A stretch of 59,569 nt of DNA from positions 1 through 59,569 of the forward strand of contig JALOTZ010000015.1 in NCBI GenBank assembly GCA_025457615.1, given 5' to 3'. A model generated the notes under the pieces. That model did not search any database and had not been told where the DNA came from. It worked only from the letters and a program-made list of their open reading frames with translations. Source of the DNA: Verrucomicrobiota bacterium. Its GTDB lineage: Bacteria; Verrucomicrobiota; Verrucomicrobiia; Limisphaerales; DSYF01. The position numbers and the translations under genes were made by a program. Within the stretch, counting starts at the first letter, position 1; every line of letters begins with the position of its first letter. Of this stretch, positions 4,230 through 36,966 are shown one piece after another.

Positions 4230-4270
4230 TTGACCTGGGTCAAAGCCAGGCTGATGAGCTGCTTTAAAAT
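4230..4270 (+). promoter_or_regulatory. FNR/DNR-type box and -10 of the Mo-cofactor operon
   Basis: TTGACCTGGGTCAA occupies 4230-4243, a perfect TTGAC-N4-GTCAA palindrome. TAAAAT at 4265-4270 follows after 21 nt, the spacing of a class II Crp/Fnr-activated promoter. The predicted transcript would start about 4 nt before the ATG at 4281. Confidence 0.7.
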
Positions 4271-4280
4271 CACTTCAACC

Positions 4281-5207
4281 ATGCAACTGCGCTACGACGA
4301 GGATTTCATCGAGTCCGCCGCGTTTCTCTGCACGAGCGGAAAACGTAAGAGCGTTCCGTCGTTGCAGATCGTCCGCTTCCATCGCGAGCGTGAGAGGCTC
4401 TACGCCATTCTTGATCCCGACGAGCGCAACACGGCCTTCTTCAACCTGCACCTCGACTGGTTTCGCGAATGGGGTCTGGAGAAACTCATCACGGATCTGC
4501 TGAAGGAATTCCCGCTGCTGCCGGAGAAGCTGGCCGTGCTCGCGGTGCGGAAGACGCGCAACAAGAACGACGATGGCGCGGAACTTTACGTCAACGAAAC
4601 CGGCCAACGCAGCGCCATCCTCGCCTTGCGCCCGGAGTCCTTCGAGCGCGATGCCGCGCTGCGAGATTATGTGCGCCACGAGTTCACCCACTTGAGCGAC
4701 ATGCTTGATCCCGCCTTCGGCTACGCGCCCACGCTGGACCTTCCCGGATTGAACGGCGCGCAGCAACGCCTCGCCCGCGAGCGTTACCGCCTGCTGTGGG
4801 ACATCACGATTGATGGCCGCCTCGCCGCCGCCGGGCGCTCGCCGATGCAGCCCCGCGAGCAGCACGCCGCCGCGTTCGCGCGCGGCTACTCGTTCTGGTC
4901 GGAGCAAAGGCAAACTGAAACCTTCAACTCGCTCTGGGAATGCCGCGCGCCGCACCACGCGGATTTCCTCGCACTGATTGCCGACCCGCGTGGGTTGCGC
5001 GATGCGCATCGGCCCGAGCCGGGTGCGTCCTGCCCGTTGTGCGACTTTCCGACATTCCAATGGGCGGATGCGACGGTGTTGCCACCGGCAATTCTCCAGC
5101 GCATCACGGCGGAGTTTCCCGCGTGGCAGCCGGAGCAGAGCTTGTGCAGCCGCTGTCTGGAGACCTATGAAGCAACGGCCAGTCTGGAGTTGGCGTCGGC
5201 ATCATGA
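4281..5207 (+). CDS. HExxH metallopeptidase-like protein with C-terminal zinc knuckles
   Basis: This is a 308-residue protein. RHEFTH puts a gluzincin-type HExxH at residues 133-137 inside a predicted helix, so it is probably a zinc metallopeptidase or a zinc protein of that fold. Near the C-terminus, CPLC and CSRC form a treble-clef or ribbon-like cysteine pair, possibly a second metal site. No signal peptide is seen, so it is probably cytoplasmic. I chose the ATG at 4281 because the in-frame TTG at 4230 lies in the regulatory palindrome. It is the first gene of a run with MOSC, MobA and radical SAM genes, and it sits directly behind a nitrogen-oxide-type box. I do not recognise the family. 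A role in maturing or turning over a metalloenzyme is a guess from context. Confidence 0.7.
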   Translation: MQLRYDEDFIESAAFLCTSGKRKSVPSLQIVRFHRERERLYAILDPDERNTAFFNLHLDWFREWGLEKLITDLLKEFPLLPEKLAVLAVRKTRNKNDDGAELYVNETGQRSAILALRPESFERDAALRDYVRHEFTHLSDMLDPAFGYAPTLDLPGLNGAQQRLARERYRLLWDITIDGRLAAAGRSPMQPREQHAAAFARGYSFWSEQRQTETFNSLWECRAPHHADFLALIADPRGLRDAHRPEPGASCPLCDFPTFQWADATVLPPAILQRITAEFPAWQPEQSLCSRCLETYEATASLELASAS

Positions 5208-5222
5208 AATAATTTGGCAACT

Positions 5223-5687
5223 ATGTTGCGCGTTGAACATCTTTGCGTTTCGCCCGGTCATAATTTCTTTGGTCATCACGGGCAGGCGGCTGGTGGGCAT
5301 CCGATTGTAGTCGTTGAACATATCGAATGCGTTGCTGGACGTGGGATTCGCGGCGACCGTTTCTTTGATTACAAGGCGAACTACAAGGGGCAGATAACCT
5401 TTTTTGCAATGGAAGTGCTGGAGGCGCTGCGGCGCGAATTGAATCTGCCTGACGCCCAACCACTGGCTACCAGACGCAATGCCTTTACTCGCGGCGCAGA
5501 TTTGAATGGGCTGATCGGGAAACAATTCGAGGTGCAGGGCGTGCGATTCGAGGGCGTGGAGGAAAGCAGGCCATGTTACTGGATGAACTCGGCGCTAGGG
5601 CCGGGCGCGGAAGAGTGGTTGCGTGGCCGGGCAGGATTGCGTTGCCGCATCTTGACGGATGGCAGGCTTCATCGGGAAGGGTGTTGA
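5223..5687 (+). CDS. MOSC domain protein
   Basis: A 154-residue protein matching a stand-alone MOSC domain. It has the GIRGDRFFDY segment near the middle, the R-N-AFTRGADLN motif, and a conserved cysteine in ESRPCYWM. MOSC domains occur at the C-terminus of Mo-cofactor sulfurases and as small proteins thought to handle sulfur on, or bind, molybdopterin. It begins 15 nt after the metallopeptidase stop, and the mobA start lies 1 nt beyond its own stop, so it is co-transcribed with Mo-cofactor maturation. An in-frame TTG at 5214 could add three residues; the ATG at 5223 is preferred. Confidence 0.8.
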   Translation: MLRVEHLCVSPGHNFFGHHGQAAGGHPIVVVEHIECVAGRGIRGDRFFDYKANYKGQITFFAMEVLEALRRELNLPDAQPLATRRNAFTRGADLNGLIGKQFEVQGVRFEGVEESRPCYWMNSALGPGAEEWLRGRAGLRCRILTDGRLHREGC

Positions 5688-5688
5688 T

Positions 5689-6279
5689 ATGCAATTCAGT
5701 GCTCTCATCCTTGCGGGCGGCGAGTCCAAGCGCATGGGCCGCGACAAGGCGTGGATGGAAGTTGGCGGCAAGCCCTTGATTCAACTGGCCGTGGAGAAGG
5801 CCCGCGCGCTAGGCATCAAAGAAATCTTCATCTCGGGCCGTGCCGGTGGAGACTATTCGGCATTGAAGTGCCCAGTCCTGTTCGATCTTGAGCCAGGCTT
5901 TGGACCTATGGGTGGAATCGAGCGCGGGTTATACGAGTGTGCTTCCCCGTTATTGCTCGTGCTCGCGGTTGATTTGCCCCGGATGAGCCTGACACTCCTG
6001 GGCAGAATGCAAAATGCCTGTGACCGCCTGACCGGCGTCGTCCCAAAACTGAACGGGCAGCTTGAGCCGATGGCGGCGATATATCCTAAACGCTGTCATG
6101 CATTTGCTTTTGCGGCCATTGCCAGGTCTCATTATTCAGCACGCGCTTTTGCCTCCGCTTGCTTGGGCGAACGAGCCGTGCGGACGTTTGCTGCGACCCC
6201 GCGTGAAACCTCGAACTTTTTGAATTGGAATCGGCCCGCCGATTTTTCCGACGATACAGGAGTGTCCGCACCGAACTAA
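5689..6279 (+). CDS. mobA: Molybdenum cofactor guanylyltransferase
   Basis: A 196-residue protein. It opens with the nucleotidyltransferase signature LAGGESKRMGRDKAW near residue 8, the GTP-binding P-loop-like motif of MobA. DLEPGFGPMGGIERGL and AVDLPRMS follow and match the metal- and nucleotide-binding parts. MobA transfers GMP from GTP to Mo-molybdopterin to give the bis-MGD cofactor used by DMSO-reductase-family enzymes. The nitrate reductase at 33409-35625 needs that cofactor. The ATG at 5689 starts one base after the MOSC stop, and an upstream in-frame ATG at 5659 would overlap the MOSC gene. The length is normal for the family. Confidence 0.88.
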   Translation: MQFSALILAGGESKRMGRDKAWMEVGGKPLIQLAVEKARALGIKEIFISGRAGGDYSALKCPVLFDLEPGFGPMGGIERGLYECASPLLLVLAVDLPRMSLTLLGRMQNACDRLTGVVPKLNGQLEPMAAIYPKRCHAFAFAAIARSHYSARAFASACLGERAVRTFAATPRETSNFLNWNRPADFSDDTGVSAPN

Positions 6280-6286
6280 AGCCGTC

Positions 6287-7180
6287 ATGTGCCTACAGAA
6301 TGAATCCTTGAACGGCGCTCCCGCGCAATCTGCCGACGGAGCAAACAACACCGTGTTCGGACACCCTCGGGATTATCTTAACAAGCGGTTTGTTTATGCG
6401 GTGATCTCGCAGCGTGCGCACGGCCTTTCCATCGGCATCAACCTCACGCCGGACCATCACTGTAATTTCGACTGTGCCTATTGTGAAATTGACCGCGACC
6501 GTCCCGTGCGCGACCGGGAGGTGGACATCGCCATCCTCCTAAGCGAACTGGATGAGTTGCTTGTCATGGCCAAGGAAGAGCGGATGCGGGAAATTCCGTG
6601 GTTGCGCAACGTGCCTGACGAATTGCTGGAACTGAAGGAAGTAGCACTCAGCGGCGATGGCGAACCGACCTTATGTCCGAAGTTCCGTGAGGCTGTCGAA
6701 ACAGTTGTCCATCGGCGGGCACAGGAACAGCATCCATTCAAACTCGTTCTTGTCACCAACACAACGGGCCTTGGATTGCCCGATGTTCAACGTGCCCTGC
6801 GTCTATTTGCATCTTGGGACGAAATCTGGGTCAAACTGGATGCTGGCACACAACCCTATATGAATCGCATCAATCGGCCTGGCATCAGCCTGAAAGAAGT
6901 GTTGGACAACATCCATAGCATAGCCAAGACGCGCCCGGTCGTGGTGCAAAGCTTGTTTCCATTGTTGGACGGACTAGAGCCGCCAACCGAAGAGATTGAG
7001 GAATACGGACGCCGGCTGCTGGAATTGAAACAGGCGGGCGCGCAAATCTCGCTGGTTCAGATTTACTCGGCGCATCGTCCGCCGCATCGCCCGAACTGCG
7101 CACATCTGCCGTTAAAAACACTGTCCGATATTGCACGTCGTGTCAGGCGGGACACCGGTTTAAGAGTCGAGGTGTTTTGA
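6287..7180 (+). CDS. Radical SAM protein
   Basis: A 297-residue radical SAM enzyme. CNFDCAYCEID carries the CxxxCxxC [4Fe-4S] ligand set at about residue 63. LSGDGEPTLCPKF is the GGEP-like segment that contacts SAM, and VLVTNTTG and VKLDAG mark later barrel strands. The architecture resembles the wyosine-synthase-like or activase-like family of small radical SAM proteins without a SPASM extension. The substrate cannot be read from the sequence. It begins 7 nt after mobA, which suggests a role near molybdoenzyme maturation, but this is inference only. Confidence 0.78.
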   Translation: MCLQNESLNGAPAQSADGANNTVFGHPRDYLNKRFVYAVISQRAHGLSIGINLTPDHHCNFDCAYCEIDRDRPVRDREVDIAILLSELDELLVMAKEERMREIPWLRNVPDELLELKEVALSGDGEPTLCPKFREAVETVVHRRAQEQHPFKLVLVTNTTGLGLPDVQRALRLFASWDEIWVKLDAGTQPYMNRINRPGISLKEVLDNIHSIAKTRPVVVQSLFPLLDGLEPPTEEIEEYGRRLLELKQAGAQISLVQIYSAHRPPHRPNCAHLPLKTLSDIARRVRRDTGLRVEVF

Positions 7181-7241: not shown

Positions 7242-7640
7242 TCATTCCAGTGCCGGAAAGACGATGGTGTGCTCCTTGTGATTGTGTGCGGCCAGCAGCC
7301 TTTGCAGCGCGGTCTCCTCGGTATCGGTCGCTCTGTCCAAGCGGCTTAACTTCGCCTCGATGGCGGCTAGCAGTTTTATCACTTCCCGGTGCTCCTCCCG
7401 CAACAAATCGCAAGTGCCTTCCAAGCCGCCTCCAACTCTATGAAGGAACTCGGGAAAGACCTCGGCTTCTTCCCACTGAATCCGCCGAGTGATGGCGATT
7501 TTGAATTCGGCGAAACACTTTGCCGCCGCAGGAAAGTTTGATGCCTTGAGGGTTTGAAAGCGATGAAATGGCGCGCCAATCTCCTCGTCGTTCAACCACG
7601 AGTCGCCACTATGAGGCTGCCTTGCATCAGAGATTTTCAC
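7242..7640 (-). CDS. Hemerythrin-like (HHE) domain protein
   Basis: A 132-residue four-helix-type protein with the spaced His/Glu ligands of a hemerythrin di-iron site: H near residue 26, WEEAEVFPEF, LREEHREV and the C-terminal HNHKEHTIVFP. Hemerythrin-like proteins bind O2 or NO, or help repair Fe-S centres, and are often induced during denitrification. The start is a GTG at 7640. On the minus strand a FNR/DNR-type box (7687-7674) and TAGAAT (7652-7647) place the predicted transcription start on that GTG itself, so the message may be leaderless. It diverges from the DGC-domain gene and shares the same box. Confidence 0.82.
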   Translation of the reverse strand: MKISDARQPHSGDSWLNDEEIGAPFHRFQTLKASNFPAAAKCFAEFKIAITRRIQWEEAEVFPEFLHRVGGGLEGTCDLLREEHREVIKLLAAIEAKLSRLDRATDTEETALQRLLAAHNHKEHTIVFPALE

Positions 7641-7646: not shown

Positions 7647-7715
7647 ATTCTAGGAAAGCCGTGGCAAGAAGCCTTGACGTAGGTCAAAGCCCGTCGTCGT
7701 CAGGTTCTTTACCCT
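7647..7715. promoter_or_regulatory. Bidirectional FNR/DNR-type promoter region
   Basis: TTGACGTAGGTCAA at 7674-7687 is flanked on both sides by -10-like hexamers. TAGAAT (read on the minus strand, 7652-7647) lies 21 nt away. TACCCT (plus strand, 7710-7715) lies 22 nt away. One palindrome could therefore serve hemerythrin leftward and the DGC operon rightward. The leftward -10 is the better match. Confidence 0.65.
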
Positions 7716-7745: not shown

Positions 7746-8246
7746 ATGAATGACGACAAAAAGCTTCCGTTGGTTTACGCCTGTTCCGGCGCATCAAGCG
7801 CGGCGCAGTTGGCCAATCACATTGCGGTGAAGCTGGACCGGCTCAAGGTCGCGGAGATGTCCTGCATCGCGGGTGTGGGCGGCGACGTGAAGCCGTTGGT
7901 GAAAACTGCCTTGTCCGGGCGGCCCATCATCGCGCTGGACGGTTGCCCATTGCAGTGCGCGGCGAAGATTCTGGCGCGGCACGGCTTGAAGGCGGACAAG
8001 CATCTGGACTTGAGCGAACTCGGCGTGAAGAAACGCAAGCATGAGGATTTTGATCCGCAGGAGGCGGCGCGCGTGCTCCAGCAGTTGCTTGATGCGCCAG
8101 ATTTCCCGGGTCGTTCCCAGACTGCCGCCAACACCTTGACTTCGGCGATGACACCCACGCCTGCCGCTGCGGCGGACGAGCCAATGAAAAGCGCCAGTCC
8201 GCCCTGTTACCTGGCGGAGTTTGATCGCTCGCCGCCAAAAACCTGA
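7746..8246 (+). CDS. DGC-domain putative zinc-binding protein
   Basis: A 166-residue protein. Residues 1-115 match the DGC domain family: YACSGASSAAQ near the start, MSCIAGVGG, then the name-giving DGCPLQCA with its C-x3-C. These cysteines are thought to bind zinc, and the biochemical role of the family is unknown. The last 50 residues are low complexity (Ala/Pro/Thr) and probably disordered. It lies 59 nt downstream of the shared box at 7674 and is the first gene of a run that continues into the radical SAM and flavoprotein genes. In other bacteria DGC proteins recur near nitrogen-oxide or anaerobic genes, which fits here. Confidence 0.75.
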   Translation: MNDDKKLPLVYACSGASSAAQLANHIAVKLDRLKVAEMSCIAGVGGDVKPLVKTALSGRPIIALDGCPLQCAAKILARHGLKADKHLDLSELGVKKRKHEDFDPQEAARVLQQLLDAPDFPGRSQTAANTLTSAMTPTPAAAADEPMKSASPPCYLAEFDRSPPKT

Positions 8247-8359
8247 GCGGGCTGACCGTCTGGCTGGGGTGCGCTGGCGATTGAATGTCGGAGTTGAGTC
8301 CACTGGAGTCAGAGGGCAATTGGCACTGGGCTGTGGCAAGGCTCTAAATTTCTCACATC

Positions 8360-9730
8360 ATGTTGCCTCAAACCCAATCATGGCTTCAGTCGGCCGCAGC
8401 CGCGCCGGATGCGCGGGACGATTATTCGCGTCCAGCGGCGGCGGAGCCGGTGGTGGGCAACTACTTCGTCGCGGCCTATCCACCGTTCTCAGCCTGGACC
8501 GAGGCGCAAGTGCCGGCGTTGCACGATGCGTTGGGGCGGCACCCGACTTCCGTGCCGTTGGGTGTCTATGTCCACCTGCCGTTTTGTCATCACAAGTGTG
8601 ATTACTGCTACTACCTCTCCTACATCGGGCAACCGGCGGCGGTGATCAACCGTTACCTGGACACGGTGATGCGGGAGGCGGCGCTTTACGCGGCGCAACC
8701 GGCGGTGAAGGAGCGACCCGTGGCCTTCGGCTATTTCGGCGGCGGCACGCCGTCGCTTCTGAGCGTGGCCCAACTGAGCCGGCTGATGACCGGCTTGCGC
8801 GCGGCGTTCCGTTGGGACGCGGCGGAAGAAATCACCTTCGAGTGCGCACCGCGCTCCGTGACGCGCGAGCTGCTGGCGGCCCTGCGCGAATCCGGCGTGA
8901 CGCGGGTGAGCATGGGCGTGCAGAGTTTCGACGACGGGTTGCTCGCGTTGAATGGCCGGGTGCATCGCGCGGCGGACGTGCGCCGGGCGTATGTGTTGAT
9001 CGCGGCGGCGGGATTTGCGCAGGTGAACCTCGACTTGATGTGCGGGCTGTTGGGCGAAACCGACGCGCACTGGCACGCGACCCTCCAGCAGGTGCTCGAA
9101 CTGCAACCGGACGCGGTGACGCTTTACCAGACGGAAATCCCGCGCAACACGAGGCTGGCGCGGGAATTCGAGGCGGGAATGCTGCCCACGCCGCCGCCTT
9201 CCTGGGAGGTCAAGCGGGCGCGGCTGGACGCGGGCCGACGGGCGTTTGAGGAGGAGGGTTACACGGCCACCAGTGCTTACAATCTGGTGCGTGATCCGGC
9301 CCGGCAGCCCTTCCGATATCAAGACCTGCTCTGGCGCGGCGCGGACATGCTGGGCCTGGGCGTGGCGTCGTTCGGTTACGTGGGCGGGGTGCATTACCAG
9401 AATCAAACCAAACTCGAAGCTTACGAGGCCGCCTTGGCCGGTGGCGCGTTGCCCCTGCAACGCGCCTTCCCGCTGACACCGGGCGACCAGCTCATCCGCG
9501 AGTTCATTCTCCAACTCAAGCTGGGCCGCGTGGACCTGGCACCGCTGCATGCACGCTTCGGCGTGGATCCGCTGGAGCGCTTCGCCGCGCCCTTAAAGGC
9601 GTTCGCGGACGACGGCTGGCTGACGTGGAATGAGCGCGCCGTGGAACTGACCCGTGCGGGATTGCTGCGCGTGGACCGGCTGCTGCCGGCTTTTTACGAC
9701 GCCCGCTTCCAAACCATCCGTTACTCGTGA
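8360..9730 (+). CDS. HemN-like radical SAM protein (coproporphyrinogen oxidase superfamily)
   Basis: A 456-residue protein with PFCHHKCDYCYY giving radical SAM cysteines C76, C80 and C83. YFGGGTPSLL, SMGVQSFDDGLL and DLMCGLLGET are characteristic of the HemN/HemW superfamily, and a HemN-type C-terminal domain follows. True HemN has a further Cys two residues after the third ligand; here that position is Tyr. This argues against assuming coproporphyrinogen dehydrogenase activity. HemW-like or specialised radical chemistry is possible. It starts 113 nt after the DGC gene and is followed closely by a second radical SAM gene and a flavoprotein, suggesting a three-enzyme pathway. Confidence 0.78.
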   Translation: MLPQTQSWLQSAAAAPDARDDYSRPAAAEPVVGNYFVAAYPPFSAWTEAQVPALHDALGRHPTSVPLGVYVHLPFCHHKCDYCYYLSYIGQPAAVINRYLDTVMREAALYAAQPAVKERPVAFGYFGGGTPSLLSVAQLSRLMTGLRAAFRWDAAEEITFECAPRSVTRELLAALRESGVTRVSMGVQSFDDGLLALNGRVHRAADVRRAYVLIAAAGFAQVNLDLMCGLLGETDAHWHATLQQVLELQPDAVTLYQTEIPRNTRLAREFEAGMLPTPPPSWEVKRARLDAGRRAFEEEGYTATSAYNLVRDPARQPFRYQDLLWRGADMLGLGVASFGYVGGVHYQNQTKLEAYEAALAGGALPLQRAFPLTPGDQLIREFILQLKLGRVDLAPLHARFGVDPLERFAAPLKAFADDGWLTWNERAVELTRAGLLRVDRLLPAFYDARFQTIRYS

Positions 9731-9791
9731 GCCTGCCCGTGACCGCAATTTTATTGTGCAAACCTAATCCACCATGTTTATACAAAACTCC

Positions 9792-11744
9792 ATGAGTAAA
9801 AAAATCCTGCTAACCAGTGTGTGCCGCCCGTTGGGGCCGGAATACGGCGATGCTCCCTCGGTGGGTTATGAACTGCTTTACCGGCAGGTCCTCCGCGCAC
9901 AAGGCATCTTCAGTCCGCGCACGGTCAACATCCACTTTGGGCTGGAATACATCGCCGAAAATCTCGACGCCCCCACCGTGGTGTTGCAATACCCCTCGAA
10001 GCGCGAACTGATCCAGGAACTCAAAAAGGGCTACGATTACGTGGGCGTCTCCTTCCTGATGGCGGTGATGCACAAGATGAAGGAAACCGTTGCGCTCATC
10101 CGCCAGTATTCACCGCACAGCAAGATTGTTTTGGGCGGTTACGGCACGGTGCTCAAGGATGAAGTGCTCAAACCCTACGGGGATTACATCTGCCGCGAGG
10201 AGGGCGTGGCGTTCTTTCGCCGGTTGCTGGGCGAACCCCCTATTCCGATGCCCTACAAACACCCGCTGATCGTGAGCTGGCTGAAGGTGTTTGGCATCAA
10301 AGTCTCCGGGACAGGGAAAATCTTCGCCGGGCTTGGCTGTCCGAATGGCTGCGACTTCTGTTGCACGTCCCATTTCTTTTCGCGCAAACACATCAAGCTG
10401 CTGCCCGAAGGCAAAGACATTTACGCCGTGGCGGAACGTTATCTCGATCTTGATCCCCGGCTGGTGTTCTTGATTCTGGACGAGGATTTCCTGCTCAACA
10501 AAAAACGGGCGATGGAATTTCGCGATTGCGTGATGAAGGGCGGGAAGAAGCTCTCGATCTTTGCCTTTTCCAGCATCAAGGCCATCAGCCAATATACCGT
10601 GGAGGAAATACTGGAGATGGGCATTGACGGCTTCTGGATCGGCTACGAGGGAACGCGCTCCAATTACGCCAAGCAACAGGGCCGGCCCGCCAACGAGATC
10701 CTCAAGGAGTTTCGCGACCATGGCATCACCGTGCTGGCCTCCATGATTGTCGGTTTTGATTATCAAACTCCGGAAGTCGTGGCGCAGGAACTGGACGGCC
10801 TGATGAAAGCGAAACCGGCTCTGGCGCAGTTCCTGATTTACGGACCCGTGCCTGGCACGCCGTTCCACGAGCGAGTCATCAAAGAGAATCTGTTGCACGA
10901 CATCTACACGACCGACAAGGACCTGTTCTATCGGCGGGCGGATGGGTTTTGCACGATGATGAAACATCCGACGCTCTCGCCGGAGCAAATTGAAGACATC
11001 CAGCGCTGGTGTTTCGAGCAGGATTTTCACCGGCTCGGGCCGAGCATCTATCGGGTGCTGGAAGCCCGGCTGCTGGGTTATCAAAAGCTCAAGCATTCCT
11101 CCAATCCCATTCTCCGCCAAAAGGCGGAATACTACGCCGCCGAACTGCGCACCGCGTATCCGGTGTTTCTCGCCGGGCGATTGCTCGGACCGAACACCTA
11201 CGTGCGCCGTTGGATCGATGACTTGGAGCGGCGCATCCATGCCGAATTGGGCCAGCCCACGCTGCGCGAGCGTGGCACTTCCGTGCTTGCGGTGGGGGCC
11301 GCATTGTGGACGGCGCTGACCCTCAAGATGAATTGGTTTCAGCACCCCAAATTGATCCGCACCACGTATCGCCTGCCCGGGGAGCGTGGAGGCGGCTTCG
11401 CCAGATGGGAGGAATTTCAGCGCAAGGTGACTTCGCCGGAGTTCTCCATCCAGGTCGAGTTGCAACATGCCAAGCAACAAGTCTGGATGCGGTTGGAAGG
11501 TGTCCTTTCAACCTTGGAGGCCGAGGGGCTGGGCGAACGGATTAGCGAGTCCCTGGCCCGCAGCCGCAGCCGCCTGATTCTGGATTTGAACAAACTACAC
11601 TGGGACAAGACCCAGGATCTGCGTCCGCTCCGGGAAAAACTGGCGGCCCATCGCTCGCGCATCCGGCTCGTGCTGCCCAAGCTCGCCGCGCCCCATCCTG
11701 AGTTGCTGCTGCTCGCCAGCCTGTTCCAACATTACCACCATTGA
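9792..11744 (+). CDS. Cobalamin-type (B12-binding-like) radical SAM protein
   Basis: A 650-residue protein. Residues about 1-140 form a Rossmann-like domain of the B12-binding radical SAM class (YDYVGVSFLMAVMHKM, KIVLGGYGTV). CPNGCDFCC gives the cluster cysteines C183, C187 and C190. The usual DxHxxG cobalamin-ligand motif is not evident, so B12 may bind base-off without it or not at all. The C-terminal 200 residues are extra and unassigned. The ATG at 9792 (MSKKILL) is preferred over the ATG at 9774 because of family N-termini. Relatives do methylations or C-C bond chemistry on lipids and natural products. It lies between the HemN-like and halogenase-like genes. Confidence 0.78.
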   Translation: MSKKILLTSVCRPLGPEYGDAPSVGYELLYRQVLRAQGIFSPRTVNIHFGLEYIAENLDAPTVVLQYPSKRELIQELKKGYDYVGVSFLMAVMHKMKETVALIRQYSPHSKIVLGGYGTVLKDEVLKPYGDYICREEGVAFFRRLLGEPPIPMPYKHPLIVSWLKVFGIKVSGTGKIFAGLGCPNGCDFCCTSHFFSRKHIKLLPEGKDIYAVAERYLDLDPRLVFLILDEDFLLNKKRAMEFRDCVMKGGKKLSIFAFSSIKAISQYTVEEILEMGIDGFWIGYEGTRSNYAKQQGRPANEILKEFRDHGITVLASMIVGFDYQTPEVVAQELDGLMKAKPALAQFLIYGPVPGTPFHERVIKENLLHDIYTTDKDLFYRRADGFCTMMKHPTLSPEQIEDIQRWCFEQDFHRLGPSIYRVLEARLLGYQKLKHSSNPILRQKAEYYAAELRTAYPVFLAGRLLGPNTYVRRWIDDLERRIHAELGQPTLRERGTSVLAVGAALWTALTLKMNWFQHPKLIRTTYRLPGERGGGFARWEEFQRKVTSPEFSIQVELQHAKQQVWMRLEGVLSTLEAEGLGERISESLARSRSRLILDLNKLHWDKTQDLRPLREKLAAHRSRIRLVLPKLAAPHPELLLLASLFQHYHH

Positions 11745-11790
11745 CCGGTCGGCTGGTCACGACTCCACCACGAAACGCAACTAAATCCTT

Positions 11791-19711: not shown

Positions 19712-19720
19712 TGAGCCAAA

Positions 19721-28722: not shown

Positions 28723-28726
28723 AGAA

Positions 28727-30151: not shown

Positions 30152-30341
30152 CAGATTGTTCCTGGGATTCGCCGATGAACCCGCGTTTCTCCAGCTCCGC
30201 GTTAAGCAGCGCGGGACGCCAGCGGGTGTGGACGCGCAACTCCACCCCCTCCGGCAGCGTGGTGACCGCTTCGAGCGTTTTCATCAGCGGCATGGGCGGT
30301 TCAAAGCTGCGAGCGTCGAGCTCGATGATGGACGTGCTCAT
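30117..30341 (-). CDS. DUF2249 domain protein
   Basis: A short 74-residue DUF2249 protein: IIELDARSFEPPMPLMKTLE, LPEGVELRVHTRWRPALLNA and the terminal GSCITHIRRR. The RxxPALLNAELEKRGF segment fits the central helix of the domain. The start overlaps the cupin stop by 4 nt, and the end overlaps the 12-TM gene start by 35 nt, so all three are tightly coupled. The protein may chaperone or donate sulfur or metal to its neighbour, but this is a hypothesis. Confidence 0.75.
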   Translation of the reverse strand: MSTSIIELDARSFEPPMPLMKTLEAVTTLPEGVELRVHTRWRPALLNAELEKRGFIGESQEQSDGSCITHIRRR

Positions 30342-30688
30342 ACCTTTGCTTCGGGTTTGCTCAAGGTGAGCAACATGGAGAACTGCCGGTTCGCCTTGAC
30401 CGCGTGTGGCAGATTAGGCGGCATGTAAATCAGGTCGCCGGCTTTGACTGCGTGTGGTTTTCCGGCGAGAGAGAGTTCACATTCGCCGGAAAGGATTTGA
30501 ATCACCGCATGCTGCGTCGAGGTGTGTTCGGTGAGTTCCTGCCCCTCGGCGAAACCGAAAAGCACGACCCGGGAATTCGGCGTGCGCAGGATCGTCCGGC
30601 TGACGATTCCGTTCGCCGCATATTTGGTTTCCGCCGCCAGCGAAATGATGCTTTCGGCAGCCGGGTCAATCAAGGGCCTCTCACTCAT
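30338..30688 (-). CDS. Cupin-domain protein
   Basis: A 116-residue single-domain cupin. GQELTEHTSTQHAVIQILSGE and GDLIYMPPNLPHAVKA are the two cupin motifs, with the histidines that usually hold a metal. The first motif has EHTSTQHA in place of the classical HxH spacing. The start is the ATG at 30688, because the longer reading begins inside the box at 30723. It is the first gene of the cupin/DUF2249/oxidase-like/DUF59/DUF2249 operon. GATACT (30700-30695) puts the predicted transcription start on the A of this ATG. Confidence 0.78.
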   Translation of the reverse strand: MSERPLIDPAAESIISLAAETKYAANGIVSRTILRTPNSRVVLFGFAEGQELTEHTSTQHAVIQILSGECELSLAGKPHAVKAGDLIYMPPNLPHAVKANRQFSMLLTLSKPEAKV

Positions 30689-30694: not shown

Positions 30695-30736
30695 AGTATC
30701 GCCCAACAGCGACGGACGCGCTTTGACGCAAATCAA
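30695..30736 (-). promoter_or_regulatory. FNR/DNR-type box and -10 of the cupin operon
   Basis: Read on the minus strand, TTGATTTGCGTCAA (30736-30723) is followed after 22 nt by GATACT (30700-30695). The +1 predicted from this spacing is 30688, the first base of the cupin start codon. Confidence 0.7.
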
Positions 30737-30819: not shown

Positions 30820-32334
30820 TTAGCAGTGCGTGGGTGAACTTCGCCGGTGATAGAACCAGAGGTTCACCCCCAGGCAAATCAAGGCAAACAAGGCCATCCC
30901 CGTGTAGGCCCAGGCCGGGCCGCCCAGATGATCCATGGTCCAGCCGAGCAACAGCGGCGGCACGAACCCGCCCAATGCGCCCAGACAACTGACGATGCCA
31001 ATAGCTGCACCCGCCTCCTTTGAAAGCACGAGCGGAATGATCTTGAACACACTGCCATTGCCGAGGCCGGCCGCCGCGCAGATCAACAGGATCACGGCGA
31101 AGAATCCGGCGAACTGATCTGGCTGGAGAAATCCAGAAAGGCTGAAGCCACCCACGGCCATTGTGCCGATTGAAATGGACGTGATCAGGCCCGCGCCAAA
31201 TTTGTCCGCCAGCCAGCCGCCGAGCGGACGCATCAAAGTGGCAATGGCCGCCGCCCACGGCGCATAAAGCAAGGGCTTGGGTGCGCCGCCCGGCGCGGCC
31301 GCAAACACTTCCTTGATGATGAGCGGCAATGAAGCCCCCATGGCCACGAAGCAACCGAAGGTAAGGAAGTAGAGGAACGAAAGCACCCAGGTATGCAATC
31401 GTTTTCCCGCCACGAGTTGTGAGGCCAGGGTTTTGGGCGGCGTGGGGTTGTCTTTTGTGCCAAACCAAATCGCCGCCGAACAGATCAGAATAATGGGAAT
31501 CCAGACCAACGCGGCGTTCTCGATGTGGACGACCCGGGCAGGCGTTGGCGACGCCTCTTGCGCCGCACCCAGCCAGGAAAAGCCGATCACGACGGGAATG
31601 GTGAATTGCGCGATGGTTACGCCGAAATTTCCCAGCCCGTTGATGCCCAGCGCCGTGCCCTGGGTTTGCTTGGGAAACCACAGATTGATGACGCCCATTG
31701 AAGTGGCGAAGTTCGCACCAGCGATGCCGGTCAGCGCCGCGCACGCAAGCAGCACCCAATACGGCGTGGCCGGATTCTTTACGGCCAAGCCGGTGGCGAT
31801 ACACGGGAGCAGGAGCAGCAGCGTGACGATGGCGTAACTTTTCCGGCTGCCGAACGTGGAAACAATCAGGCCGTAGGGAATGCGCAGAACCGAACCGAGC
31901 AGCACCGGGGTTGCCGTCAGCCAGAACAGTTGCTGGCGTGAGAAGGTGAAGCCCGCGTCTTTCAATCGCAACGGAATGGCCGACCACATGAACCAGACGG
32001 CAAACGCCAGCGCCAACGAAACCGCGCTGATGCCCAGCGTGCGCCAGGCAAGCGCCGCCTGCGGAAAAGCTTCGCGCACCACTTCCCGCGCCGGCAGGCG
32101 GATAGGCGAAGGCAAATAACGCAACAACGCCGCGCCCGCGCCAAACAGCGCGAGCGACGTCCAAAAGGCCGGCCATTTGACCGCATTGTGGCCGTCGAGC
32201 GATTCATTCAACGCCACCGTCAGCAGCCACACCTGCATGATGAGAATGAGGATCAACACGCACATCACGCCCAGCAGCAGCGTGTTGGTCTTGGTGGGAT
32301 GCGCCTGTCGTTGGGCTTCGCGGAAAGTGCTCAT
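30820..32334 (-). CDS. narK: NarK-type nitrate/nitrite transporter (MFS)
   Basis: A 504-residue MFS protein. Two extra N-terminal helices precede the usual twelve. The first nitrate signature is readable as GANFATSMGVINLWFP followed by QTQGTALGINGLGN. The second lies around GLGNGSVFKIIPLVL. These Gly/Asn-rich segments are diagnostic of nitrate/nitrite porters. It overlaps the Rieske gene by 4 nt and ends the nitrate reductase operon, so it probably brings nitrate to the reductase and exports nitrite. The length is slightly greater than usual because of the N-terminal pair. Confidence 0.88.
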   Translation of the reverse strand: MSTFREAQRQAHPTKTNTLLLGVMCVLILILIMQVWLLTVALNESLDGHNAVKWPAFWTSLALFGAGAALLRYLPSPIRLPAREVVREAFPQAALAWRTLGISAVSLALAFAVWFMWSAIPLRLKDAGFTFSRQQLFWLTATPVLLGSVLRIPYGLIVSTFGSRKSYAIVTLLLLLPCIATGLAVKNPATPYWVLLACAALTGIAGANFATSMGVINLWFPKQTQGTALGINGLGNFGVTIAQFTIPVVIGFSWLGAAQEASPTPARVVHIENAALVWIPIILICSAAIWFGTKDNPTPPKTLASQLVAGKRLHTWVLSFLYFLTFGCFVAMGASLPLIIKEVFAAAPGGAPKPLLYAPWAAAIATLMRPLGGWLADKFGAGLITSISIGTMAVGGFSLSGFLQPDQFAGFFAVILLICAAAGLGNGSVFKIIPLVLSKEAGAAIGIVSCLGALGGFVPPLLLGWTMDHLGGPAWAYTGMALFALICLGVNLWFYHRRSSPTHC

Positions 32335-32840
32335 GCGGTTGCGGGTTCGGTGACGTAGATGTCGTCGCCTTTGACGACGACTTCGAGTCGCGGCAGCGGA
32401 CGCGGCGGCGGGCCTTGGAGAACATTGCCAGTGCGCGCGTCAAACCAGCCGTTGTGACAGGGACATTGAATCTTGTCGGCAGCCGGTTGATAAAAGACTG
32501 CGCAGGAAAGGTGCGTGCATTTCTGCTCGAAGGCCCGCCAACCGCCGTCGTTCAGATGAATCAGGATGAACGGCGTTTTTGAGCCGGTAACCGTAAACGC
32601 GCGAGTGCCGCCCACCGGAACTTCCCCGGTCTTGCAGACGAATTCCTCGCCCTGAATCCGATGCGGTGGAAACAGGCGATCCTTGACGGCCACCCAGCCG
32701 CTGCCGACGGCCATGCCGCCGGAAACCAGGCACAGAAACTTGGTGAATTCGCGGCGGGAAACGTGTTCGGCTTCCACGCGCTCGATGGGAAAGTCCACCT
32801 CCGGCGCGGACTTTTCAGGTAATGGGCTGTTGGGGTTCAT
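32331..32840 (-). CDS. Rieske [2Fe-2S] protein
   Basis: A 169-residue protein. SRREFTKF followed by a hydrophobic stretch is a twin-arginine-type anchor near residue 30. The Rieske cluster is held by QKCTHLSC and CPCHNGWFD near residues 110 and 130, giving the C-x-H and C-x2-H ligand pairs. Between the two comes a short loop typical of soluble Rieske domains. It overlaps both its neighbours by 4 nt (ATGA), with the ferredoxin subunit upstream and narK downstream. In this operon it may pass electrons between quinol, haem b and the reductase. Confidence 0.85.
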
Positions 32841-33412
32841 TCGCTATCCACGATGAGTTCGGTTGCGCCTTTGGGCATCATGATGTTGACCTTGGTTTTC
32901 ACAAGCTGCTGGCCGAAACGGAACGTGTTGACCGGGGAGCTTTTTGGGCGATTGCGGGTGATTTGTTCCCGTGTCCCGTAGAACAATGCGCCGCTGGGAC
33001 AGACGGTAGCGCACATCGGCTTTTTACCCGCGCTGGTGCGGTCGTAGCACATGTTGCACTTCATCATTAAATCGAGCGGCTCGACTTTCTTAGGCACGCC
33101 GAACGGGCAGGCTTGAACGCAATTCGAGCAAGCGATGCAGCGAGCTGTGTTCGCGCTGTGAACGATGCCAAACTCGTCCTTGGTGATGGCGTCGGCGGGG
33201 CAGACCTTGGCGCAGACCGGGTCTTCGCAGTGCATACAGACTTGCACGGAAGTTTGCGTCGTCAGAAAACGATCCACGTAATCCACGTGAATCATCGCCG
33301 TCTGGCCGTTCGTTTCACATTCGGCGCACGCCATCTCGCAGGCGTGGCAACCGATGCAACGCTGCGGATCGAAAAAGAATTCCTGGTCCGTGCGAAACGT
33401 CGTGGTGTTCAT
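32837..33412 (-). CDS. Four-cluster ferredoxin subunit (NrfC/DmsB-like)
   Basis: A 191-residue protein with the four cysteine groups of DmsB/NrfC electron-transfer subunits. They are [12 protein letters not shown] (residues 18-29), [30 protein letters not shown] and [12 protein letters not shown]...CATVCP, ligating four [4Fe-4S] clusters. It carries electrons from the membrane subunit to the molybdenum subunit. The ATG at 33412 overlaps the stop of the catalytic gene. No signal peptide is seen, so it stays with a cytoplasmic catalytic subunit. Confidence 0.88.
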
Positions 33413-35625
33413 GCGCTGGCGTAGGCTTTGGTTTCCGCCGGGGACGGCGCGGGACGGCCCTGCGGTTCGAGCCGGCAGGCGCAAACCTTGAATTCGGGAA
33501 TCTTGGAAATGGGATCAAGATGCCCCGAAGTGAGTTGGTTGGCGGACTTCCTGCCCGGCCAATGATAGGGAATGAACACCGTGTCCTCGCGAATGGTCTC
33601 GACAAGTTGCGCCGGGAATTCCGCCGCGCCGCGCCGCGTCACGACCTTGACCAGCTCGCGGTCCTTGATGCCGAAGCGCGCCGCCGTCTGGGGATGAATC
33701 TCCAGCAATGGTTCGGGATACTGTTCGACGAGTTTGCCGATGCGCCGCGTCTGCGTGCCGCTGAGGTATTGCGATACCACGCGACCGGTGGTGAGGATCA
33801 TCGGATAGTCCGCATCTGTGAGTTCCGCCGGTTCGCGATAAGGGACGCCGTGAAAATGCGCCCGGCCATCGGGCGTCTTGAATTTGCGGTCCTCCCACAA
33901 TCGCGGCGTGCCGGGATGATCTTCCGACGGACACGGCCAGAACACGCCCATGTTGTCCTCAATTTTCTTATAGGTGATGCCGAAGTAATCCGCCGTGCCG
34001 CCTTTGGACGCAACGCGCAGTTCGTTGAAAATGTCCTCGGAGGAATTAAAGCTGAAGTGTTTCTCCGCACCGAGCCGTTTGGCGATTTCCAATAGAATGC
34101 TGGTGTCGGTGCGGGCGTTGCCCGGAGGATTGATTGCCTTGCGGATGCGCACCACGCGCCCCTCGGCCGTGGTCACTGTGCCGTCCTCCTCTTCGTGGAG
34201 CGAGCCGGGCAAGATCAGATTGGCGTGGCGGGCGGTCTCGTTGAGGAAGAAATCAATGCAGGCGTAGAACTCCAGCTTTTCCAGCGCCTCGCGAATCATG
34301 TTGTTGTTCGGCAGGGAGACGAGCGGGTTGAAGCAGATGCTCAACAATCCTTTGATTTCGCCGCGATGAATCGCCTCCATGATTTCGTAGGCGGTGAGCC
34401 CCTTGCCGGGCATTTCCTTTTCCTCAATGCCCCAAACGCTGCTGATGTATTTGCGATGCTCGGGATTCTCGATGTCGCGATTGCCGGGAAGTTGGTCGCA
34501 CTTGTGACCGTGCTCGCGTCCGCCCTGGCCATTGCCCTGGCCGGTGATGGTCGCATAGCCGCAGTAGGGCTTGCCAATGCGGCCAGTCGCCAGCACAAGA
34601 TTGATGCAGCCGAGCACGTTCTCGACGCCTTTGCTGTGATGCTCGATGCCGCGCGCGTGCATCAGGAAACTCGTCTTGGCCGCGCCCCACCACTGCGCGG
34701 CTTGCATGATCTTGTCCTTGGGGATGCCCGTCGTGCGCTCCGCCCATTCCAGATCGTAGGATTCGACGGCTTTCTTCGCTTCCTCAAATCCGCTGGTGTG
34801 ATTGGCGATGAATTCGTGATCGAGCCAGTCATGCTTGATGAGCTGGTGCAGAATCGCTCCATAAAGCGCCGAGTCACGACCCGGACGGATGGGCAGATGC
34901 AAATCAGCGGTGCGCGCAATGGGGGTGAGGCGCGGGTCAACGACGATGAGCTTCGCGCCATTGTCGCGCGCCTGCCAGATCCAGTGCGTGAGTGTCGGGA
35001 ACGTTTCGCTGACGTTCGTGCCGCAGATCATCACGACCTCGGCGTGGGCGAGGTCGGAGTAATTGTTCGAGCCACGATCCAGACCGAATGCCTTCTTGTT
35101 GCCCGCGCCGGCACTGACCATGCAGAGGCGTCCGTTGTAATCGAGGTTCTTGGTCTTGAGAGCCACCCGCGCAAACTTGCCAACGAGATAGCTTTTTTCA
35201 TTCGTCAGCGAGACGCCGGACAGCATGGCGAACGCATCGCGGCCATACTGCCCTTGAATGCGTTGGATTTCGGAAATCAATCGGTCGTAGGCGGCATCCC
35301 AGCCGATCGGACGGAAACCCTTGCCCTCGACGCGCTCAATCGGATCGAGCAGGCGGTCAGGATGATTGTTTTGCAGATAACGCTGGACGCCCTTCGGACA
35401 CAGCCGGCCTTCGTTGTAAGGAAATTCCTCCCACGGTTCGAAGCCGACGATCCGATTGTCCTTCACCAGCAGTTTGATGCCGCATTGCATGCCGCAAAAG
35501 CAGCAGTGCGTTTTGACGACCTCATCCGGCTCGTCGCGCCCCGGATAGCCCTGCACGGGCGGGAAGTTGAGCGACGGCCCGAATTGGGCAATCAGGTTCT
35601 CGGCAGTTACAGGTAAGGTTGCCAT
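33409..35625 (-). CDS. Molybdopterin nitrate reductase catalytic subunit (NasA/NapA-like)
   Basis: A 738-residue DMSO-reductase-family enzyme. [10 protein letters not shown] and GRLCPKG ligate one [4Fe-4S] cluster (C41, C44, C48, C76). [10 protein letters not shown] puts a cysteine at C168 as the likely Mo ligand, as in NapA, NasA and formate dehydrogenases. [12 protein letters not shown] and [15 protein letters not shown] are MGD-binding and family motifs. No twin-arginine signal is visible, so it is cytoplasmic. The genes with it (NarK, ferredoxin, Rieske, membrane cytochrome) and the box upstream support nitrate as substrate, although formate or another oxyanion cannot be excluded by sequence alone. 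It starts 6 nt after the membrane gene. Confidence 0.82.
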
Positions 35626-35631
35626 GACAAT

Positions 35632-36678
35632 TTATCCGAAGAGTGAACCCGCCTTTTGCCGGGCCTTGAGATGGGCCTTGGCCAGCAAGGCCCGTTTGCC
35701 GCGCGGACTGTATTCGATATGCGACTTGCCGTCCTTGCGCGCGTAATTGAAACCCAATTCGGCGGCCACGGCTTTGACATCGTCCACGTGCATTTGCGAA
35801 TCGAATTCCTCTTTCGTGTGCGGACAAACCGCCTGCGGCCCTTCCGCGCCGGCGCGCCGGTAGATAGCGATGCCCAACTGCGCGGGCCGTTGGATGATGT
35901 GGTAAAACTTGCCGAACGGCATCCAGAGCAGGAACAGAATCACCGTGATGGCGTGGGTGATGGCCATAAACTGATGCGCTTTGCCCTCCATAAACTTGTA
36001 GTCGAGGCTGATGCCCAAGCCGGTCAGCGAAATGGCCAGCAACAGCAACAACGGCAACCAGTCACCTTCGAACGTCTGGATCGCGATCTGCCCGGCGTGC
36101 GTGAGGCGGCGGCGCATCATGATCATCACGCCCACGATGACCAGTATGGCCGACCAGTTCAGCGCGTTGAAGATGATTTCCGCCAGCACGGTATGCAGCG
36201 GAAACTCCATCACCTTGAAACCAAAGGTGAAAATCTCATAGGTGTTGATGCCGCCGGGCTTCAACCCGAAGTGAATCCAGCCAAACACCAATGGAAACGT
36301 CACGGCAAACGCCAGCAGACAACCCCACGCCATTAACATGTGGCCGTAGCCGCGTGCCTTGCTCCGGTTGCGGATGAACTTCTGGCCGAGGAACTGCACA
36401 ACAAAATGCTTCGTCAATTCCCAGCCGTAAGCGATGGTGCGTCCGGTGAAGAACAATTTCCAGCCGCGGGCGAAATACCGCCAGGTCGGTGGCCGTTGCA
36501 GCCAGACCGTGTAGCGATAGACAATGCCGAAGCAGGCGAAGATGCAGCCAAACAAATAGGCGACCAGCGCCGGGTCAAAGTTGGTCAGATTGCGAGAGCC
36601 GACCAAAATCGAAATCACCAGCAGTGCCGTGGCAACGGCAGCTATCCATGCGGCCCGGAGATTAAGCGTGTTGAACAT
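35632..36678 (-). CDS. Membrane haem b subunit of the nitrate reductase complex (NarI/HdrE-like)
   Basis: A 348-residue membrane protein. Its hydrophobic helices include AAWIAAVATALLVISILVG, LVAYLFGCIFACFGIVY, MLMAWGCLLAFAVTFPLVFG, ILVIVGVMIMM, LPLLLLLAISLTGLGISL and AITHAITVILFLLWMPFG. Histidines in THAITV, HGHML-like (YGHML) and PLHTV positions could ligate haem b, as in NarI and the HdrE/DsrM family. The soluble tail carries a lone VCPH motif. It is the first gene of the nitrate reductase operon and likely oxidises quinol. The leader between the predicted transcription start (about 36838) and the ATG is about 160 nt. Confidence 0.72.
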   Translation of the reverse strand: MFNTLNLRAAWIAAVATALLVISILVGSRNLTNFDPALVAYLFGCIFACFGIVYRYTVWLQRPPTWRYFARGWKLFFTGRTIAYGWELTKHFVVQFLGQKFIRNRSKARGYGHMLMAWGCLLAFAVTFPLVFGWIHFGLKPGGINTYEIFTFGFKVMEFPLHTVLAEIIFNALNWSAILVIVGVMIMMRRRLTHAGQIAIQTFEGDWLPLLLLLAISLTGLGISLDYKFMEGKAHQFMAITHAITVILFLLWMPFGKFYHIIQRPAQLGIAIYRRAGAEGPQAVCPHTKEEFDSQMHVDDVKAVAAELGFNYARKDGKSHIEYSPRGKRALLAKAHLKARQKAGSLFG

Positions 36679-36844
36679 GTGTGCTTGCGGCGGACGCTAC
36701 AAGTCTATTGAGTCGCCTCTTAAAGTCGAGCGACCAATACCTCTTGGCGTCCGTTTCATTCCAGCGATTGCATCGGAAGTGCAACTGAAAACACTTCTAG
36801 CTGCACTGCCCGCCGGACCAGTGTTGCTGGTTACCATTCGGCAA

Positions 36845-36886
36845 AGAATAGCAGCGCTTCCCATAACAGCGTTTGACTCGAATCAA
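36845..36886 (-). promoter_or_regulatory. FNR/DNR-type box and -10 of the nitrate reductase operon
   Basis: On the minus strand TTGATTCGAGTCAA (36886-36873) is followed after 22 nt by TATTCT (36850-36845). The predicted +1 is near 36838, giving a leader of about 160 nt to the ATG at 36678. Confidence 0.65.
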
Positions 36887-36925
36887 AGAACTGGCAGTTC
36901 TGACCATACGCTCGCCGAATCGCTT

Positions 36926-36966
36926 TTGACGTGGGTCAATGTGCCGCTTGCACATTGTGATACGAT
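36926..36966 (+). promoter_or_regulatory. FNR/DNR-type box and -10 of the TauE/moa operon
   Basis: TTGACGTGGGTCAA at 36926-36939; TACGAT at 36961-36966 after 21 nt. The predicted +1 is 36973, one base before the GTG at 36974. The two boxes at 36873 and 36926 face opposite ways, 39 bp apart, and serve divergent operons. Confidence 0.7.

What the first reader, a model, noticed from the sequence alone, without database searches (positions are those of the whole stretch)
4230..36939. Seven-box nitrogen-oxide regulon spread over 33 kb
TTGAC-N4-GTCAA or TTGAC-N4-ATCAA occurs at 4230, 7674, 13238, 23638, 30723, 36873 and 36926, each in the gap before an operon start. The operons are Mo cofactor, hemerythrin/DGC, secreted surface proteins, DUF2249, cupin/oxidase-like, nitrate reductase and moa. 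I noticed no such palindrome inside the genes. A Crp/Fnr protein with the matching E-x2-SR helix lies in the same block. Placing surface solenoid proteins and a radical SAM/flavoprotein pathway in this regulon is not something I know to be described.
Basis: partly seen in the sequence, partly recalled or inferred. Interest (0 to 1): 0.82.

Follow-up and report, generated by a model that had tools for sequence, protein, structure and literature searches.

The report
Nitrogen-oxide regulon including a halogenase-like pathway
Seven copies of one DNA palindrome stand in front of operons on a single 60 kb bacterial contig; they are likely landing sites of one regulator, predicted to switch on nitrate-respiration genes together with a radical SAM and halogenase-like pathway, a partner that such switches are not known to have.

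Summary
In detail: seven boxes, exactly where stated, all between genes, 7 of only 17 such sites in the 3.33 Mb genome. Two lines of evidence say they are used. A -10-like hexamer stands 22-23 nt after the box in all 8 gene-facing directions scored, the -41.5 (class II) activator geometry; none of 20,000 random intergenic sets scored as high. Box plus -10 is 3.8 times denser in 66 related genomes that carry this regulator than in 80 without it. The regulator's best match among solved structures is the NO sensor DNR, just ahead of an uncharacterised relative. In the neighbourhoods fetched from relatives, boxes recur before cupin (12 of 12), HemN-like (4 of 4) and halogenase-like genes (5 of 7). 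An eighth box precedes an octaheme cytochrome operon on another contig. The surface-protein branch rests on its own box alone: 0 of 11 homologous loci have one. NO sensing, DNA binding and expression are untested. The contig also carries a MobF relaxase and a coupling protein, so the regulon may be mobile. The kind of system is known; its membership here is partly new.

The parts
4230..4243 (.). box 1, TTGACCTGGGTCAA; TAAAAT at offset 22 towards the Mo-cofactor operon, its start codon at offset 38; CAGAAT at offset 22 towards the gene at 1-4110 (-)
4281..7180 (+). Mo-cofactor operon: 308-aa protein of unknown family, MOSC, MobA-like, radical SAM
   Evidence: the 308-aa gene lies in the nar-regulator blocks of G130 and G028
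1..4110 (-). glucose/sorbosone-dehydrogenase plus cytochrome c554-like protein, cut by the contig end; possible second target of box 1
7674..7687 (.). box 2, TTGACGTAGGTCAA; TACCCT at 23 (+), TAGAAT at 22 (-)
7242..7640 (-). hemerythrin-like protein; GTG start at offset 34 from box 2
7746..13089 (+). DGC protein 7746-8246, HemN-like radical SAM 8450-9730, B12-binding radical SAM 9774-11744, flavin-dependent-halogenase-like protein 11791-13089
13238..13251 (.). box 3, TTGACTTGGGTCAA; TAAAAA at offset 23 (+)
13508..23550 (+). four secreted or surface proteins (PATR repeats, NHL repeats, partial H-type lectin similarity, 144 aa) followed by a PNPOx-like protein and a cystathionine gamma-synthase-family enzyme
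   Evidence: membership rests on box 3 alone
23638..23651 (.). box 4, TTGACTCACGTCAA; TAGAAA at 23, start codon at offset 36
23687..28012 (+). DUF2249 protein, HlyD/MacB/ABC exporter, Crp/Fnr regulator
27293..28012 (+). DNR-like Crp/Fnr regulator (239 aa; ORF open from 27188)
30723..30736 (.). box 5, TTGACGCAAATCAA; GATACT at 23 (-), ATG at offset 35
28068..30688 (-). cupin 30338-30688, haem-copper-oxidase-I-like membrane protein 28727-30151, FeS-assembly (PF01883) protein 28408-28722, DUF2249 28068-28379
   Evidence: boxed in relatives
36873..36886 (.). box 6, TTGACTCGAATCAA; TATTCT at 23 (-)
30820..36678 (-). QmoC-like membrane cytochrome, NasC-like molybdoenzyme 33409-35625, FeS protein, Rieske protein, NarK-like transporter
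36926..36939 (.). box 7, TTGACGTGGGTCAA; TACGAT at 22 (+), GTG at offset 35
36974..41534 (+). TauE-like exporter, MoaD, MoaE-MoeA fusion, MoaC, MoaB-like, MoaA
41827..44682 (-). MobF/TraI relaxase (mobility context, not part of the regulon)
51446..52927 (+). TrwB/TraD-like coupling protein (mobility context)

Best explanation
The seven palindromes are likely class II activator sites of the DNR-like Crp/Fnr protein encoded at 27293-28012, which would switch on these operons together when nitrogen oxides appear. Predicted mechanism: the active dimer binds TTGAC-N4-[GA]TCAA centred at -41.5, touches RNA polymerase and starts transcription about 35 nt after the box; at five of the eight scored directions that falls at or within four bases of the start codon, so those messages would be leaderless or nearly so. 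Shown in sequence: the boxes, the -10 spacing, the recurrence in relatives, the correlation with the regulator gene. Inferred: binding, activation, nitrogen oxide (NO above all) as the signal, positive autoregulation through box 4. The controlled set is a nitrate reductase-like complex with its Mo-cofactor supply, NO-associated proteins (hemerythrin, DUF2249, haem-copper-oxidase-like protein), a HemN-like / B12 radical SAM / halogenase-like operon and, by its own box only, a surface-protein operon; outside the contig an octaheme-cytochrome operon also carries the complete promoter.
For: Seven exact sites, all intergenic, 7 of 17 in the genome. -10-like hexamer at offset 22-23 in 8 of 8 scored directions, mean score 3.26 against 1.36, 0 of 20,000 random sets. 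In relatives 38 of 49 boxes intergenic in 671 kb that is 14.6% intergenic, backwards control 0; best -10 at 22-23 in 20 of 47 directions (4.2e-15). Extended pattern 194 in 361.0 Mb of 66 regulator-bearing genomes against 49 in 346.2 Mb of 80 others, Mann-Whitney p = 2.6e-9 (4.6e-9 without the own genome); backwards control runs the other way, 10 against 22. Box before 12 of 12 distinct cupin genes, 7 of 10 haem-copper-like, 5 of 7 halogenase-like, 4 of 4 HemN-like genes in the fetched neighbourhoods. DUF2249 gene directly upstream of the regulator in 20 of 42 loci. Regulator: best PDB match DNR, E-x2-SR, only two cysteines. Molybdoenzyme has Cys-Met at the Mo ligand as in the periplasmic nitrate reductase, where the three formate enzymes aligned have His. 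Eighth complete promoter on C27 before tetraheme cytochrome / FeS / NrfD / octaheme HAO-like genes.
Against: No binding, expression or signal data. The -10 spacing was first seen by eye, then tested; the relatives and the genome-wide count are the independent tests, and their p-values ignore relatedness. Neighbourhoods of relatives were fetched around the regulator or the halogenase-like gene, so counts there are not a random sample. 18 of 42 regulator loci show no box within 5 kb (some are short contigs). A second regulator of the same clade (54% identical, C95) with nearly the same recognition helix could serve these boxes. The NasC-like (850 of 1100 bits) and NarK-like (266 of 312 bits) genes score below their curated cut-offs and the best PDB matches of the first are formate enzymes. 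No copper nitrite reductase and no NrfA over cut-off were found, so a source of NO is not evident. Surface branch not conserved. B12 radical SAM gene boxed in only 3 of 11 other loci examined.
Confidence: 0.8

Rival explanations
1. The boxes are real and co-regulate the operons, but the signal is oxygen or redox state rather than nitrogen oxides (FNR/FixK-like role).
For: The box is the FNR type; FNR and DNR share it in other bacteria (PMC5398030 passages). No NO-generating nitrite reductase NirK or NrfA over cut-off was found in the genome.
Against: The regulator has two cysteines, so no FNR-type four-cysteine iron-sulphur site; its best solved match is DNR; the regulon is built of nitrate, Mo-cofactor and NO-associated genes rather than general anaerobic metabolism.
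Confidence: 0.25
2. The boxes are served mainly by the second Crp/Fnr protein of the genome (C95), or by both, rather than by the contig's own regulator.
For: C95 protein is 54% identical and has SETLSRTLAK where the window protein has SETFSRTLAK; a box lies beside it before a second haem-copper-like cluster.
Against: The window regulator lies within the boxed block, and its gene is in a boxed unit; in many relatives one regulator of this clade is present with boxes nearby.
Confidence: 0.2
3. The box at 13238 is a relic or serves an older downstream pair (PNPOx-like and cystathionine-synthase-like genes), and the surface proteins are passengers inserted between the flavoprotein and that pair.
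For: In G084 HemN-like, halogenase-like, B12 radical SAM, PNPOx-like and, further on, the cystathionine-synthase-like gene lie in one same-strand block without the surface genes. No homologous surface gene elsewhere has a box.
Against: Box 3 has a -10-like hexamer at the right place (TAAAAA at 23), and the genes downstream are closely packed.
Confidence: 0.4
4. Chance palindromes in intergenic DNA.
For: Outside the window only 4 of 10 sites are intergenic, so the bare 14-mer is a weak predictor by itself.
Against: Clustering p = 1.1e-9, -10 spacing, conservation and correlation with the regulator.
Confidence: 0.02

Closest known systems
DNR regulon of Pseudomonas and beta-proteobacteria (PMC1274295, passages read)
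   Same: FNR-type box TTGAT-N4-ATCAA, NO-responsive Crp/Fnr activator, control of nitrogen-oxide genes; COG4309 is named there as a gene linked to NO reductase (that COG4309 is DUF2249 is recalled)
   Different: Here TTGAC half-sites prevail, the phylum is Verrucomicrobiota, no nirK was found, and a radical SAM/halogenase-like operon and surface genes are included
HcpR regulon (same paper)
   Same: TTGACnnnnGTCAA is given there as the HcpR site of two cyanobacteria; HcpR regulons include nar, nrf, hemerythrin-like and cytochrome c genes in some lineages
   Different: Core target hcp not looked for here; the regulator's best solved match is DNR, and no HcpR sequence was compared
Nitrate respiration conjugative element of Thermus thermophilus (PMC6282519, passages read)
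   Same: Nitrate respiration with its own Crp-like regulator on a mobile element, and DUF2249 proteins (DrpA, DrpB) expressed under that regulator
   Different: Different reductase type and regulator; Thermus element has no halogenase-like branch in the passages read; mobility of our contig is inferred from gene content
E. coli FNR class II promoters (PMC3688515, passages read)
   Same: Site centred near -41.5; 19 of 23 directly activated promoters with known start there
   Different: Here the start codon lies at the predicted +1 in many promoters, so leaderless messages are predicted
Methylobacter NO / quorum sensing / tundrenone response (PMC6977074, passages read)
   Same: A secondary metabolite cluster tied to an NO and hypoxia response
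   Different: Other genes and another circuit; no halogenase or radical SAM term occurs in that text

Membership tests
DNR-type Crp/Fnr regulator | cNMP_binding domain plus Crp-type HTH | tested here: met
   PF00027 77.6 bits and PF13545 58 bits, over cut-off
DNR-type Crp/Fnr regulator | E-x2-SR recognition helix | tested here: met
   SETFSR, invariant E..SR among the 28 aligned proteins, which had been picked by that motif
DNR-type Crp/Fnr regulator | no FNR-type four-cysteine cluster | tested here: met
   two cysteines in the window protein, 1-4 in the 28 aligned
DNR-type Crp/Fnr regulator | groups with DNR rather than other Crp/Fnr clades | tested here: inconclusive
   best PDB match DNR 3dkw (1.2e-24), almost tied with 3fx3 and 3h3z (2.8e-24, 2.9e-24); no NCBIfam model over cut-off, best FtrB 108 of 211 bits; no tree made
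DNR-type Crp/Fnr regulator | binds haem and senses NO | not testable with these tools
   -
DNR-type Crp/Fnr regulator | FNR-type box at -41.5 before targets | tested here: met
DNR-type Crp/Fnr regulator | controls nir, nor, nos | tested here: inconclusive
   NirK not found, NrfA below cut-off; nirS, nor and nos were not searched; box-controlled haem-copper-oxidase-like and octaheme proteins present
HcpR regulon | TTGACnnnnGTCAA site | tested here: met
HcpR regulon | hcp as core target | not tested
   hcp was not searched for
Flavin-dependent halogenase (11791-13089) | GxGxxG and GWxWxIP motifs and aligned lysine (motifs recalled) | tested here: met
   GGGPGG, GWFWYIP, FLDPIYSSG in window; same set in 5 of 5 orthologues looked at (GWFWFIP in one); lysine aligned with PltA
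Flavin-dependent halogenase (11791-13089) | halogenates a substrate | not testable with these tools
   best NCBIfam match CmlS at 194 of 900 bits, so no equivalog
Nitrate reductase, NasC/NapA type (33409-35625) | curated family cut-off | tested here: not met
   NasC model 850 of 1100 bits; Fdh-alpha 622.5 of 666 bits
Nitrate reductase, NasC/NapA type (33409-35625) | Cys-Met at the Mo ligand instead of Cys/Sec-His of formate enzymes (distinction recalled) | tested here: met
   RLCM aligned with RLCM of periplasmic nitrate reductase and with RLXH, RLCH, RICH of three formate enzymes
Conjugative or mobilizable element | relaxase and coupling protein | tested here: met
   MobF model 226.9 bits over 100; TrwB_AAD_bind 57.3 over 20.5
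Conjugative or mobilizable element | defined ends, or circular; transfer | tested here: inconclusive
   no terminal overlap of 20 nt or more; contig ends inside genes; transfer not testable

The most novel reading that the evidence does not exclude
A mobile nitrate-respiration element carries its own DNR-type switch, and that switch drives a dedicated biosynthetic pathway (HemN-like radical SAM, B12 radical SAM, flavin halogenase-like enzyme, cystathionine-synthase-like enzyme) that makes or attaches a modified, perhaps halogenated, compound as part of the response to nitrogen oxides, with the surface proteins of the same contig as its place of action; all read from leaderless class II promoters.
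Probability: 0.2. Interest if true: 0.8.

Novelty: new variant of a known kind. Interest (0 to 1): 0.55.

Why it matters
Limisphaerales-type Verrucomicrobiota are known here only from assembled genomes of environmental DNA, and no such regulon turned up for them in my paper searches (titles, abstracts and counts of listed papers; the library lacks most subscription journals). If true it gives a transcription rule (box, 21-22 nt, -10, start codon) that can be read straight from sequence across the order, places an unexplained radical SAM/halogenase-like pathway in a physiological context, and suggests that nitrate respiration moves between these bacteria together with its switch.

Tried and rejected
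Chance: rejected. A single giant box-driven transcript: not needed, each box faces its own unit. Surface proteins as conserved members: no support, 0 of 11 homologous loci with a box and none in 19.9 kb around the G130 orthologue. B12 radical SAM as a general regulon gene: only 3 of 11 other loci examined (one inside the boxed G084 block, two with a box 110-150 nt upstream); three more genomes with the gene were not fetched. Large genes after the halogenase-like gene in G133, G064 and G106 as surface proteins: they are pyruvate phosphate dikinase, a sulfatase-modifying-factor-domain protein and an RapA-like helicase. Mo genes of relatives: my operon walk found no box for them, but by hand the nar-regulator-moa blocks of G130 and G028 carry one at their head; in G130 the block has gaps up to about 300 nt. 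Other own-genome sites: C60, C18 and C95:49998 are intergenic but lack a -10 at 22-23 (C95 has one at 24) as read by eye. A circular contig: no end overlap. An ATACG-N4-CGTAT palindrome over the -10 of three promoters was noted, not pursued. Meta-regulon paper PMC8510549: none of six terms found. HTH-clade tree, structure prediction and fold search were not made.

Rows dropped before counts: L022, L028 and L030 (same loci as L091, L108, L183) and L021 (same locus as the window); the duplicate L183/L030 and the cut copy L173 were taken out by hand from the counts; the direction 4230(-) was scored but left out of the mean (it fits too: best hexamer at 22).
Full report
What was claimed. Seven copies of TTGAC-N4-[GA]TCAA, each before an operon, with a Crp/Fnr protein in the same block, read as a nitrogen-oxide regulon.

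Check. The seven sites are exact. In the whole genome (3.33 Mb, 96 contigs) TTGAYN4RTCAA is found 17 times, 7 of them here, against 4 for the pattern read backwards. The window is one whole contig. All seven lie between genes, in a window that is 8.5% intergenic. Of the ten other sites in the genome 4 are intergenic, so the bare palindrome is a weak predictor outside this contig; the clustering itself has Poisson p = 1.1e-9.

Promoter geometry. After each box, towards the gene, a -10-like hexamer begins 22 or 23 nt on: TAAAAT, TACCCT, TAGAAT, TAAAAA, TAGAAA, GATACT, TATTCT, TACGAT. Mean score 3.26 against 1.36 for random intergenic places; 0 of 20,000 random sets reached it; in 7 of the 8 it is the best hexamer of the first 45 positions (the exception is the DUF2249 operon, best at 35, second at 23). 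A ninth direction, 4230 on the minus strand, was scored but left out of the mean; its best hexamer is also at 22. I saw the spacing by eye before testing it. It equals a site centred at -41.5, the class II position of FNR (PMC3688515, passages). The start codon stands at offset 34-38 in five of the eight (308-aa Mo gene, hemerythrin, DUF2249, cupin, TauE-like), so leaderless or nearly leaderless messages are predicted.

Relatives. The regulator is present in 66 of 146 related genomes at E <= 1e-40; named relatives are Verrucomicrobiota, Limisphaerales among them. In 40 stretches fetched around the regulator or the halogenase-like gene (671 kb, 14.6% intergenic) 38 of 49 boxes are intergenic, control 0, and the best -10 falls at 22-23 in 20 of 47 directions. 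Start codons lie 33-38 nt after the box in 18 of 65 directions (a slightly different set of loci). As a genome-wide test, box plus 21-22 nt plus TANNNT occurs 194 times in 361.0 Mb of regulator-bearing genomes and 49 times in 346.2 Mb of the others (0.54 against 0.14 per Mb, p = 2.6e-9; without the own genome 0.53, p = 4.6e-9); the backwards control is 10 against 22. The genomes are related, so the p-values are not exact.

Which members are conserved (fetched neighbourhoods only). Cupin: box before 12 of 12 distinct genes. Haem-copper-oxidase-like: 7 of 10. DGC: 2 of 2 (partial similarity). Hemerythrin: 1 of 2. Halogenase-like: 5 of 7 other orthologues of 54% identity or more, in five other families (G048, G133, G064, G106, G084); the two without are G004, which lacks the regulator (no match at E <= 1e-40), and G085, which has it. 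HemN-like: 4 of 4. In G084 a box is followed by HemN-like, halogenase-like, B12 radical SAM (88%), PNPOx-like and, further on, the cystathionine-synthase-like gene. The Mo genes gave 0 by the script, but the nar-regulator-moa block of G130 and the nar-regulator block of G028 have a box at their head. The DUF2249 gene sits directly before the regulator in 20 of 42 loci; in the window an exporter (HlyD, MacB, ABC) lies between them. Eighteen of the 42 regulator loci have no box within 5 kb.

Surface proteins. Box 3 has a good -10 but lies 256 nt before the called start codon. None of 11 loci with homologues of the first protein, and not the G130 orthologue of the third, has a box. This branch is unproven and may be specific to this contig.

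The regulator. cNMP and Crp HTH domains, SETFSR helix, two cysteines, best solved match DNR just ahead of two chains labelled cyclic nucleotide-binding protein, no NCBIfam model over cut-off. The genome has one more of the same clade, on C95.

What it controls. Molybdoenzyme 33409-35625: best family NasC, below cut-off; best solved matches are formate enzymes, but Cys-Met at the Mo ligand matches the periplasmic nitrate reductase where the formate enzymes have His (meaning recalled). NarK-like transporter next to it, also below cut-off. Mo-cofactor genes on both sides. NirK was not found and NrfA not over cut-off; C27 has a complete promoter of this type before tetraheme cytochrome, FeS, NrfD and an octaheme protein like hydroxylamine oxidoreductase, a candidate for handling nitrite. 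The flavoprotein 11791-13089 carries halogenase motifs, as do 5 of 5 orthologues looked at, and its best solved matches are halogenases. Known halogenases of this type use oxygen (recalled), which would suit microoxic rather than strictly anoxic induction.

Mobility. MobF relaxase and coupling protein are on the contig, its G+C (60.3%) and tetranucleotide make-up differ from 16 other stretches of the genome (distance 0.17-0.31 against 0.07-0.14). Plasmid, integrated element or misbinning cannot be told apart.

Known ground. FNR-type boxes and NO-responsive regulons with DUF2249-type genes are in print (PMC1274295, passages), also TTGACnnnnGTCAA as a HcpR site of cyanobacteria. Mobile nitrate respiration with its own Crp-like regulator and DUF2249 proteins is known from Thermus (PMC6282519, passages), and DUF2249 genes rise in haloarchaeal denitrification (PMC11218638, passages). 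A search for halogenase, radical SAM, denitrification, nitric oxide, regulon and FNR together (five of six) listed two papers, neither on this subject by title and abstract.

Verdict.

Noticed in passing
window promoters at 4230, 7674, 23638, 30723, 36926; relatives: Start codons cluster 33-38 nt after the box (18 of 65 directions in relatives), where the class II geometry puts +1: predicted leaderless messages.
   Followed up: partly
G000 C27:10366 (L073:10366): An eighth complete promoter of this type, before tetraheme cytochrome c, FeS protein, NrfD and octaheme HAO-like genes.
   Followed up: partly
G000 C95:49998-53266 (L072): Second regulator of the same clade beside a second haem-copper-like / FeS-assembly / DUF2249 cluster, with two boxes (one inside a called gene).
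   Followed up: partly
L171, L103, L109 upstream of the HemN- or halogenase-like gene: An ATACG-N4-CGTAT-like palindrome overlaps the -10 region in three genomes; possibly a second operator.
   Followed up: no
window 7746-8246; L174:15648-16481: Two unrelated proteins (DGC and a class-I amidotransferase-like protein) end in the same tail, SPPCYLxEF.
   Followed up: no
window 1-4110 (-): Glucose/sorbosone-dehydrogenase plus multihaem cytochrome c gene, divergent from box 1, with CAGAAT at offset 22.
   Followed up: partly
window 55670-59568: Type I restriction-modification genes (HsdM, specificity domain) near the contig end; ParA-like ATPase at 50389-51081.
   Followed up: no
L091 (G130), L095 (G028): Tat-type NarG-like nitrate reductase blocks that contain the Mo gene, DUF2249 and the regulator, with a box at the head.
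   Followed up: partly
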